Shown here in pieces: positions 4,188 to 31,402 of a DNA stretch of 39,397 nucleotides. The stretch spans positions 1-39,397 of the IMG/VR virus record IMGVR_UViG_3300005337_000014. One strand, written 5' to 3'. How positions within the stretch are numbered: the first letter of the stretch is position 1; the number at the start of each line of letters is the position of its first letter. The position numbers and the translations under genes are program-made. The notes beneath the pieces were generated by a model. It was given only the letters and a program-made list of their open reading frames with translations. It was not told the DNA's origin and searched no databases. This stretch comes from a virus.

Positions 4188-4646
4188 ATGAACGACGAAA
4201 TCGCGCAGCTGCGCCAAGAATTTCACTACGACCCGACGACTGGCAAGCTCTGGAAGCTTGTCGGGCACAACACGGGGCATGGCTATCAACGAGTCACGAA
4301 TGGAGTCGGAATATTTTTCCAATCCCATCGCCTTGCTTGGGCCTTGACACACGGGAAGTGGCCTGATGGGCACATTGACCACATCAACGGAGACAGGCTT
4401 GACAACCGCCTTGAGAATCTCCGTGACGTTCCGCAAGAAACAAACCAGCAGAACGAACGGAAGGCGCGAAAGAACAGCAAGAGCGGGCTTCTTGGCGCCT
4501 CTTGGAACAAGGCAATGAAGAAGTGGACCGCTAGGATTCACTTCAATGGCAAGCACCATTTCCTTGGTTACTTTGAGACTGCAGAAGCTGCTCATGCTGT
4601 TTATCTTGATGCCAAACGAACTAGTCATCCGGGTTGCACTATCTAA
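4188..4646 (+). CDS. HNH homing endonuclease with AP2 DNA-binding domain
   Basis: The 152-residue protein has an HNH nuclease core (HRLAWALTHGKWP, then HIDHINGDRLDNRLENLRD, about residues 47-80) and a C-terminal AP2-type domain (about 99-146: GLLGASWNKAMKKW, then FNGKHHFLGYFETAEAAHAV). Such proteins are free-standing homing endonucleases of phages that cut DNA and spread by recombination. It is on the + strand against the direction of the capsid operon, wedged between coat and the 130-residue gene, which marks it as a mobile insertion. It belongs to the same family as the gene at 22958-23512. Confidence 0.9.
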   Translation: MNDEIAQLRQEFHYDPTTGKLWKLVGHNTGHGYQRVTNGVGIFFQSHRLAWALTHGKWPDGHIDHINGDRLDNRLENLRDVPQETNQQNERKARKNSKSGLLGASWNKAMKKWTARIHFNGKHHFLGYFETAEAAHAVYLDAKRTSHPGCTI

Positions 4647-18505: not shown

Positions 18506-18692
18506 GTTTTTCCATGCTCCGATTGGCCGATATGCACTCTTCAAGCTTTTCTAGAAGTTGTTCATGCAAACCGTTGTCAACATAGCTGTTTAGCATGACC
18601 CTGCTCACACAGTGAGATGCGATTTCGTGCAGCTCTAGATGAAGGTCTAGAAGATGGTTCCAGTTCGCGTCTGGCTCTAGAGGATGCGTCAT
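18492..18692 (-). CDS. Small helical protein, tandem paralogue 1
   Basis: ATG 18692 overlaps the upstream stop as ATGA. The 66-residue product (LLDLHLELHEIASHCVSRVM, then YVDNGLHEQLLEKLEECISA) is the homologue of the next gene's product. Both have a short helix-turn-helix shape with two matching Cys residues. Function unknown. Confidence 0.68.
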   Translation of the reverse strand: MTHPLEPDANWNHLLDLHLELHEIASHCVSRVMLNSYVDNGLHEQLLEKLEECISANRSMEKHGQT

Positions 18693-18940
18693 TTTTTCTC
18701 CAGTTGAAGCGTATCGCCTTGGAAGCTGATCCAGTGATCGCAGCATGAACTGTGATTTGTGATGAAGTCACCTGCAGTGCACGTCGCCTGGAGAATGACG
18801 AGGAATTTCTCACCGTTTGCCGCCGTCTGTTGGCGATGCTCCTTCGGCTTGAAGTGGACACAGTTACCGCAGTGCGGAGGGCTCTCTTCGAAGCCCATTT
18901 CGCGTTTTGTGTATTTGCGCTGACCTTTTGTCATGCTCAT
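18689..18940 (-). CDS. Cys-rich small protein, probable metal binding
   Basis: The 83-residue product has a Cys pattern CGNCVHF...CTAGDF...SCCDHWISF, which fits a small zinc- or iron-binding fold seen in unnamed phage proteins. The N-terminus is basic (TKGQRKYTKREMG). ATG 18940 overlaps the upstream frame's stop as ATGA; ATG 18934 is an alternative start. Confidence 0.7.
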   Translation of the reverse strand: MSMTKGQRKYTKREMGFEESPPHCGNCVHFKPKEHRQQTAANGEKFLVILQATCTAGDFITNHSSCCDHWISFQGDTLQLEKK

Positions 18941-19206
18941 CTCTTATCCTCATGCTTCTTGGTGATCGGTTGAGGGGCGAAGCAAAGCCAACCCTGTATG
19001 AGTTGTCTAAGCTTCTCTGCTTCCCGGAGCCACGGCATCGGGGCATCGAACAGGTCGATCCAAAGCGCCTGTCTTGCGATCCTTCTGCCAGCTTGGACTG
19101 ACACCCAACGGGCGACCACATTCCGCCAAAACCCGTCCAACAGCCTGTTGCCATGTGCTGCGTAGCTTCCCGGCCATGTCGTCCAACACGGGAGCCAAGA
19201 ACGCAA
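18937..19206 (-). CDS. Doubtful open frame downstream of the pseudoknot element
   Basis: An 89-codon frame opens at TTG 19206, directly after the structured element, and ends in an ATGA overlap with the Cys-rich gene. The overlap suggests the end of this frame was once a real gene, but the start is weak and an alternative ATG at 19038 would give only 33 residues. A competing 111-codon frame (GTG 19342 to 19007) crosses the structured element. The region may be the remnant of a gene whose 5' part was replaced by the element. Confidence 0.35.
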   Translation of the reverse strand: MRSWLPCWTTWPGSYAAHGNRLLDGFWRNVVARWVSVQAGRRIARQALWIDLFDAPMPWLREAEKLRQLIQGWLCFAPQPITKKHEDKR

Positions 19207-19207
19207 A

Positions 19208-19310
19208 AGCCCTCAATCTGCTGCGTTCCGTGCTGGCGAGCGAAGGGACTTTCGTCCCACGGAGCGCATGAGATTGAGGGCTCATGACTTTTGTCCTACG
19301 CTCGCCAGCA
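19208..19310 (-). ncRNA. Pseudoknot-capable structured element
   Basis: On the minus strand two perfect 12-bp inverted repeats interleave: TGCTGGCGAGCG (19310-19299) with its complement at 19242-19231, and AGCCCTCAATCT (19282-19271) with its complement at 19219-19208. This order (B-A-B'-A') is an H-type pseudoknot. Inside the A stem are a second stem of about 11 bp (19268-19258 with 19232-19222, one G-U) and a 5-bp hairpin with a GAAA tetraloop (GGGAC-GAAA-GTCCC, 19258-19245). The A' strand is followed by TTTT, as in an intrinsic terminator. B' and the inner stem share two bases, so some pairings may be alternative states. No family recognised; a mobile palindromic DNA element is the main alternative. 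Confidence 0.6.
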
Positions 19311-19356
19311 TTGGATGTAAGAAGCATAGTCGATGTAGGCACAGTCTTGCAAGATG

Positions 19357-22958: not shown

Positions 22959-23512
22959 TGCAAGACAAGGACGCGATTGCCAAGAAGTCCCGCGATAGGC
23001 GGGAAGCCAAGAAGTCGATGCTTACATACGAGCGCCTGATTGATGTTCTTGTGTACGAGCCAACGACCGGTGATGCGTTCTTCAGGTCTCGTAGTGGGAA
23101 GCTAAAGAAGGCTGGCTGTCTTGACTCGTTCGGCTACGTGATTGTTCGTATTGACTACAACGGATACAGGCTTCATCGGCTCGCTTTCCTCTACATGAAC
23201 AAGAGGTGGCCGGAAGAAGAGGTTGACCACATCGACGGCGACAAGGGAAACAACAGATGGCTCAACTTGCGGGATGTGAATCGCTTCCTGAATATCCAGA
23301 ACTGCGATAAACCGAAGGGGAAAAGCAAGTCGGGCTATAGGGGCGTCTACGTGCACAAGAACAAATTCTTTGCCCGTATCAGCGTCGGTAAAGACGGCAA
23401 GAGAAAGACCATAAATCTTGGTCTGCACGACACGCCGGAAGAGGCCAGCTTCGCATACACGGAAGCGCAGAAGATTTATCACCCAGGATTTGTACAGAAG
23501 GACGCATCATGA
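22958..23512 (+). CDS. HNH endonuclease with AP2 domain, second copy of the family
   Basis: The 184-residue protein has an HNH core (YRLHRLAFLYMNKRWPEEEV, then DHIDGDKGNNRWLNLRDV, about residues 70-107) and an AP2 domain (SGYRGVYVHKNKFFARISV, then TINLGLHDTPEEASFAY, about 125-170), ending HPGF. It is the same architecture as the gene at 4188-4646 but clearly divergent. It is a probable homing endonuclease, here co-directional with the early genes and coupled to both neighbours, so it may be carried without disrupting them. Confidence 0.88.
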   Translation: MQDKDAIAKKSRDRREAKKSMLTYERLIDVLVYEPTTGDAFFRSRSGKLKKAGCLDSFGYVIVRIDYNGYRLHRLAFLYMNKRWPEEEVDHIDGDKGNNRWLNLRDVNRFLNIQNCDKPKGKSKSGYRGVYVHKNKFFARISVGKDGKRKTINLGLHDTPEEASFAYTEAQKIYHPGFVQKDAS

Positions 23513-31329: not shown

Positions 31330-31402
31330 GCTCTGGTAGCTTATGGAAAGCAAGCGGCTTTGTAAACCGCTGACGGGTGTTCGATTCACTCCCGGAGCAC
31401 CA
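31330..31402 (+). tRNA. tRNA, probable anticodon TGT (Thr), unusual anticodon arm
   Basis: The cloverleaf closes: acceptor GCTCTGG with CCGGAGC (one G-T), T8-A9, D stem GCTT/AAGC with A14, G18-G19 and A21 in a very short loop, T stem GGGTG/CACTC with TTCGATT loop, discriminator A and an encoded CCA. The anticodon stem AGCGG/CCGCT closes a 9-base loop (CTTTGTAAA) instead of 7; a C-A pair would reduce it to 7 with anticodon TGT. The variable loop is only 3-4 bases. It is a real tRNA gene or a diverged one; decoding of ACA is inferred. Confidence 0.82.

What the first reader, a model, noticed from the sequence alone, without database searches (positions are those of the whole stretch)
19208..19310. 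Interleaved inverted repeats forming a probable pseudoknotted RNA in the leftward operon
Two perfect 12-bp inverted repeats interleave in B-A-B'-A' order on the minus strand, with an inner stem of about 11 bp, a GAAA-capped 5-bp hairpin and a T tract after the last strand. Two interlocking 12-bp perfect stems in about 100 bases are very unlikely by chance. The element sits in the only large gap (about 400 bases) in a chain where nearly all genes overlap. It does not fit a simple terminator. Possibilities: a regulatory or decoy ncRNA, an operon-splitting RNA, or a mobile palindromic element.
Basis: partly seen in the sequence, partly recalled or inferred. Interest (0 to 1): 0.78.

Follow-up and report, generated by a model that had tools for sequence, protein, structure and literature searches.

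The report
New large structured RNA in phages
The odd knot of inverted repeats is the front end of a roughly 365-base non-coding RNA that diverse phages share, whose shape is strongly conserved while its sequence drifts, which matches no catalogued RNA family, and whose job is unknown.

Summary
The interleaved 12-bp repeats at 19208-19310 (minus strand) are real (0 of 1000 shuffles) and form the 5' domain of a ~365-nt RNA, about 19316 to 18953, behind its own sigma-70-like promoter (19352-19323). Seventeen distinct members were found: the window, 15 other IMG/VR virus contigs and one isolated phage, Xanthomonas phage Kintu, where it lies in an unannotated gap. Fifteen of 17 keep a perfect B-A-B'-A' pseudoknot whose arm sequences mostly differ between members. 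The 3' domain has strong compensatory change (28 of 46 pairs changed on both sides, 0/500 shuffles), two further pseudoknots, and two purines identical to each other in 17/17 members through five inferred co-changes. G-U outnumbers A-C 87 to 18, so the folded strand is this one and the element is RNA. It is not in Rfam 15, and no homologue turned up in bacterial genomes. Downstream genes are unrelated, and in two members neighbouring genes lie on the opposite strand, so a gene-specific leader is unlikely. I favour a free-standing, early-transcribed structured RNA acting in trans. Its partner and function are unknown. A promoter-proximal cis-acting nascent RNA is the main rival.

The parts
19323..19352 (-). 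sigma-70-like promoter, TTGCAA-N18-TATGCT; predicted start near 19316
   Evidence: best-scoring site in the upstream stretch, p=0.01 against random windows of the same record; a promoter-like site was found upstream in all 17 members (p 0.01-0.11), mostly at a fixed distance from the RNA. Inferred, no transcript data.
18953..19316 (-). the whole RNA, ~365 nt (5' end inferred from promoter, 3' end from end of conservation)
   Evidence: nhmmer and alignment of 17 members; absent from Rfam 15
19299..19310 (-). B arm of 5' pseudoknot
19271..19282 (-). A arm of 5' pseudoknot
19245..19258 (-). GAAA-capped 5-bp hairpin inside the A stem
19231..19242 (-). B' arm; in many members it lies in a hairpin with a loop of about 6-7 nt that pairs with B
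   Evidence: 15/17 members have perfect B/B' complementarity; hairpin read from the sequences
19208..19219 (-). A' arm, followed by TTTTGC (the arm's last T included in the T run)
19168..19193 (-). hairpin H3 whose loop holds the conserved GGACGAC motif
   Evidence: stems visible in single sequences; columns poorly aligned, only 39% paired
19152..19178 (-). PK2: loop-loop pairing 19178-19175 with 19155-19152
   Evidence: 94% of cells paired, 3 of 4 pairs changed on both sides
19141..19160 (-). hairpin H4
   Evidence: 97% of cells paired, 3 of 4 pairs changed on both sides
19075..19135 (-). PK3: H5 (19135-19131/19113-19109) crossed by H6 (19120-19114/19081-19075), with hairpin H7 (19103-19099/19090-19086) inside
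   Evidence: 88-93% of cells paired with two-sided changes
19051..19071 (-). hairpin H8
   Evidence: 4 of 4 pairs changed on both sides
19018..19041 (-). CCGATGCCGTGGCTCCGGGAAGCA, the most conserved stretch; direct-repeat copy 1
18968..19004 (-). conserved core AGGGTTGGCTTTGCTTCGCCCCTCAACC (18995-18968) with hairpin H10 (19004-19000/18994-18990)
18953..18965 (-). TCACCAAGAAGCA, 3' end; direct-repeat copy 2, changing together with copy 1 in most members
18689..18940 (-). next gene (83 aa, unknown), starting 13 nt after the RNA; not part of the RNA
   Evidence: no PHROG match

Best explanation
The repeats are the 5' domain of a free-standing phage non-coding RNA of about 365 nt. Host RNA polymerase probably transcribes it from its own sigma-70 promoter (inferred). 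It folds into a variable, pseudoknotted 5' domain, where a loop pairs with an upstream segment across a long stem, and a conserved 3' domain with two more pseudoknots (shown by covariation). The 5' knot probably protects or organises the RNA, while the nearly invariant motifs of the 3' domain (GGGUUUURGCG, CGAUGCYGYGGCUCCG, AGGGUURGCUUUGCU, UCACC) probably contact a conserved host factor or form a tertiary core (inferred). It most likely acts in trans as a structured RNA rather than by controlling the gene behind it. Its 3' end is probably made by processing, as no terminator is evident there (inferred).
For: Seventeen members. The 5' pseudoknot is perfect in 15/17 with mostly different arms. 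3' domain: 86% of cells paired against 32-47% when slid, 117 cells with two-sided change, 0/500 shuffles. WC 548, G-U 87, A-C 18, so this strand is the RNA. Promoter-like site upstream in all members. Downstream genes unrelated: exonuclease VIII, ERF, O-like replication protein, HNH, terminase small subunit and others. In L030 and L036 neighbouring genes are on the opposite strand. One copy per record searched. Kintu and L031 share the locus, while the Kintu relative S72 carries only the 5' domain there.
Against: No transcript data exist here. In most members the RNA is followed by co-directional genes, often with a start codon within ~35 nt, as a leader would be. L010 has lost B/B' complementarity and L036 has a diverged 5' domain. 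The 3' end is inferred only from where conservation stops. Nothing here shows action in trans directly.
Confidence: 0.6

Rival explanations
1. A promoter-proximal nascent RNA that modifies the RNA polymerase transcribing it, as HK022 putRNA does, letting any genes behind it be read through terminators.
For: A promoter-like site lies just upstream in all members; downstream genes are unrelated, as expected for a gene-blind element, and mostly co-directional.
Against: Several times longer than put (own knowledge: ~70 nt); L030 and L036 have neighbouring genes on the other strand; the most conserved part is the 3' domain.
Confidence: 0.2
2. A transcription attenuator or operon splitter: the A/A' stem with its U tract is a terminator and B/B' pairing modulates it.
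For: A/A' is a strong stem followed by a short T run in most members; S72 has the 5' domain alone directly before a gene.
Against: T run weak; the program did not call this stem a terminator on the minus strand; B/B' and A/A' can form together; a strongly conserved ~230-nt RNA domain continues downstream.
Confidence: 0.07
3. A guide RNA for a DNA-acting protein (bridge RNA, omega RNA or tracr-like); the covarying direct repeats would be two guides for the same site.
For: Two copies of a 6-7-mer and of TTRGC covary by identity.
Against: No IS110, TnpB or reverse transcriptase in 12 carrier records with working controls; the IscB search was empty but its control did not ring. HNH genes common but not universal.
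Confidence: 0.06
4. A packaging or multimer-forming RNA, like phi29 pRNA, in which loops B and B' pair between molecules.
For: Loop-loop pairing conserved; terminase genes within ~7 kb in several members.
Against: Distance to terminase varies widely; carriers include podovirus-like (window) and siphovirus-like (Kintu) phages; B/B' of 7-15 bp fits intramolecular pairing; the Kintu relative S72 has the 5' domain only.
Confidence: 0.05
5. A DNA element (mobile palindrome or origin), not RNA.
For: Palindromic arms; variable locus between Kintu and S72.
Against: G-U to A-C 87:18; one copy per record; no chromosomal homologue in a pattern scan of 84,980 species or in 768 genomes, though the latter was a weak test.
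Confidence: 0.02

Closest known systems
GOLLD and ROOL RNAs (PMC12286853)
   Same: Large pseudoknotted phage-borne ncRNAs of unknown function with loop-loop contacts; GOLLD also has a conserved 3' and less conserved 5' region.
   Different: No match to any Rfam model; ~365 nt rather than 600-800; no tRNA island nearby.
HK022 putRNA (PMC9378689)
   Same: Phage RNA just behind a promoter, indifferent to which genes follow.
   Different: Much larger, multiple pseudoknots, members with oppositely oriented neighbours.
phi29 packaging RNA (pRNA)
   Same: Phage structural RNA with conserved loop-loop pairing.
   Different: No Rfam match, no fixed position by packaging genes, different size.
IS110 bridge RNA
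   Same: Two segment pairs repeated within one RNA in the order a-b-a-b.
   Different: No IS110 recombinase in carriers; the segments are nearly invariant, not reprogrammed.

Membership tests
Any Rfam 15 family | covariance-model match | tested here: not met
   No match over the RNA of the window at gathering score, and only one chance-level hit at E<=5; none in five other member loci or over the Kintu RNA
GOLLD/ROOL | match to family model | tested here: not met
GOLLD/ROOL | often near tRNA islands | tested here: not met
   one lone tRNA-Thr 12 kb away in the window; none in 15 other loci
GOLLD/ROOL | homo-oligomeric RNA cage | not testable with these tools
   needs cryo-EM or native gels
HK022 put-like antiterminator | promoter-proximal position | tested here: met
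   (promoter itself inferred)
HK022 put-like antiterminator | suppresses termination in cis | not testable with these tools
   reporter assay needed
phi29 pRNA | match to the Rfam pRNA family | tested here: not met
IS110 bridge RNA | IS110 recombinase in the carrier | tested here: not met
   control rang in 4 genomes
TnpB reRNA | TnpB in the carrier | tested here: not met
   control rang
IscB omega RNA | IscB in the carrier | tested here: inconclusive
   no hit but control did not ring
Retron or DRT ncRNA | reverse transcriptase in the carrier | tested here: not met
   control rang
Intrinsic terminator | stem, short loop, T run | tested here: not met
   A/A' stem not called by the scan on the minus strand; 51 nt between A and A'
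Protein-coding gene | conserved open frame | tested here: not met
   stops and non-triplet length changes across members; PHROG search empty

The most novel reading that the evidence does not exclude
A new class of phage RNA machine whose 3' core holds two near-identical segments that interact or swap with a shared partner, possibly a self-assembling or switching RNA-only complex unrelated to GOLLD and ROOL.
Probability: 0.25. Interest if true: 0.85.

Novelty: categorically new. Interest (0 to 1): 0.72.

Why it matters
Large structured RNAs kept by compact phage genomes are few, and their functions are mostly unsolved. This one is uncatalogued, is supported by unusually clear covariation including three pseudoknots, and occurs in a cultured phage (Kintu), so expression, structure and deletion can be tested directly. 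The loose category (large phage ncRNA of unknown function) has precedents; the family and architecture have none that I could find.

Tried and rejected
Rfam at gathering and permissive thresholds: nothing credible. An 89-aa gene in the gap: rejected, frames break in relatives. Genome-collection pattern scan: 14 hits, about the number expected by chance by my own estimate, none with the rest of the RNA. A weak model hit in Bradyrhizobium (24.5 bits, against at least 64 bits for members) was treated as chance. rRNA mimicry: the 23S GTPase-centre resemblance I noticed is not significant. Alternative pairing of the direct-repeat copies with GCTTTGCTTC: cells 88-90% paired, but the energy model favours neither helix, and L030 keeps the repeat without that complementarity, so it stays unexplained. 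Literature searches found no description. HNH association: not universal.

Full report
Observation. On the minus strand the window holds B (19310-19299), A (19282-19271), B' (19242-19231) and A' (19219-19208), all perfect 12-mers in B-A-B'-A' order, as described. Dinucleotide shuffles never came near it (0/1000, observed 24, maximum 16), and the fold is far more stable than shuffles (z -5.0).

Extent. A search with the putative 89-aa ORF brought two virus contigs that matched at the DNA level well beyond a protein pattern and carried the same knot with different arms. Patterns from the conserved stretches raised the family to 16 distinct virus-contig sequences including the window, and blastn with the most divergent one found Xanthomonas phage Kintu, where the RNA lies in the unannotated gap between an adenine methyltransferase and an HNH gene. 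The conserved unit runs from just behind a promoter-like site to TCACC-N-RGAAGCA, about 365 nt in the window.

Evidence that it is RNA. In the 3' domain 46 named pairs are 86% paired over 17 sequences against 32-47% for slid controls; 28 pairs have two-sided changes, 117 cells, none of 500 shuffles reaching these values. The alignment was made by sequence alone, but I chose the helices from it, so the slid controls flatter the structure somewhat. One helix is a loop-loop pairing (PK2, 16 of 17 sequences) and another crosses a hairpin (PK3). H3 is poorly aligned (39% paired), and the H9 helices are not supported by folding. G-U exceeds A-C 87 to 18, which fixes the strand. The 5' pseudoknot was found mechanically in 15 of 17, with B/B' of 7-15 bp and A/A' of 10-14 bp. 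L006 and L008 share the same B. Exceptions are L010, which keeps A/A' but has lost B/B', and L036, whose 5' domain has diverged.

Transcription. The best sigma-70-like site in the 130-nt stretch upstream scores p 0.01-0.11 against random windows of the same record in all 17. In most members it ends 124-142 nt before the ACGAC position, and 172-190 nt before it in the L007/L014/L031/Kintu subtype, which has an extra 5' hairpin with a TGTGGCA loop (hairpin read from the sequences). L013 and L032 depart from this spacing. This is inference from sequence, not a transcript.

Context. The genes that follow are unrelated between most members; three (L007, L010, L032) share an O-like replication gene. 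L030 has a repressor-like gene on the other strand abutting the 3' end, and L036 is flanked by predicted genes on the other strand. Carriers include a P22-like podovirus (window: portal, terminase and head protein) and a siphovirus-like phage (Kintu). Each record searched holds one copy. Stenotrophomonas phage S72, 83-93% identical to Kintu around the locus, has only a subtype-II 5' domain there, followed by a pyrophosphohydrolase-like gene, and no 3' domain.

The odd feature. Two purines, one in GGTTTTRGCG and one in AGGGTTRGC, are identical to each other in all 17 members; parsimony needs five changes at each, and the same five serve both. A 6-7-mer after GGCTCCG and its copy at the 3' end change together (GAAGCA, AAAGCA, AGAGCA, GAGGCA, GGGACT), with small mismatches in L014 and Kintu. 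Both copies could pair with the GCTTTGCTTC between them, but folding does not support it. I leave this unexplained.

Known families. No Rfam match in the window or other members; no tRNA island; no IS110, TnpB or reverse-transcriptase partner. The IscB test is inconclusive. GOLLD and ROOL are the closest in character (PMC12286853), put RNA the closest in position (PMC9378689). Absence from bacterial genomes rests on one exact-pattern scan and two model searches that scored few candidates per genome, so it is not proof.

Verdict. A real, uncatalogued RNA family (my confidence in that part is about 0.97). Function is open; a trans-acting structured RNA is favoured, a cis-acting nascent RNA is the main rival. 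I rate it categorically new because no known family that I tested takes it in; the loose category of large phage ncRNAs is not new.

Noticed in passing
L045 (Stenotrophomonas phage S72) 3638-4087: A ~450-nt gap behind the gene that replaces the Kintu HNH gene folds moderately well (z -2.6) and contains no member of this family; it may be another structured RNA.
   Followed up: partly
L045 3030-3200: The 5' pseudoknot domain alone, with the TGTAGCAG hairpin of subtype II, sits directly before a start codon; the A' arm ends a few bases before the ATG.
   Followed up: partly
L044 5890-5930: The terminator before the Kintu RNA shares ~38-40 nt with about 200 other phage records, mostly Vibrio phages.
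   Followed up: no
window 31330-31402: Single tRNA-Thr (TGT) on the plus strand.
   Followed up: no
window 4326-4448 and 23165-23281, plus strand: Two HNH_3 endonuclease genes, both related to an HNH gene in L031's phage; one lies in the structural region.
   Followed up: no
L010, upstream of the A arm: Instead of a B complementary to B', there is a hairpin GCTG-CTACCA-CAGC whose loop nearly repeats the B' loop CTACTA.
   Followed up: no
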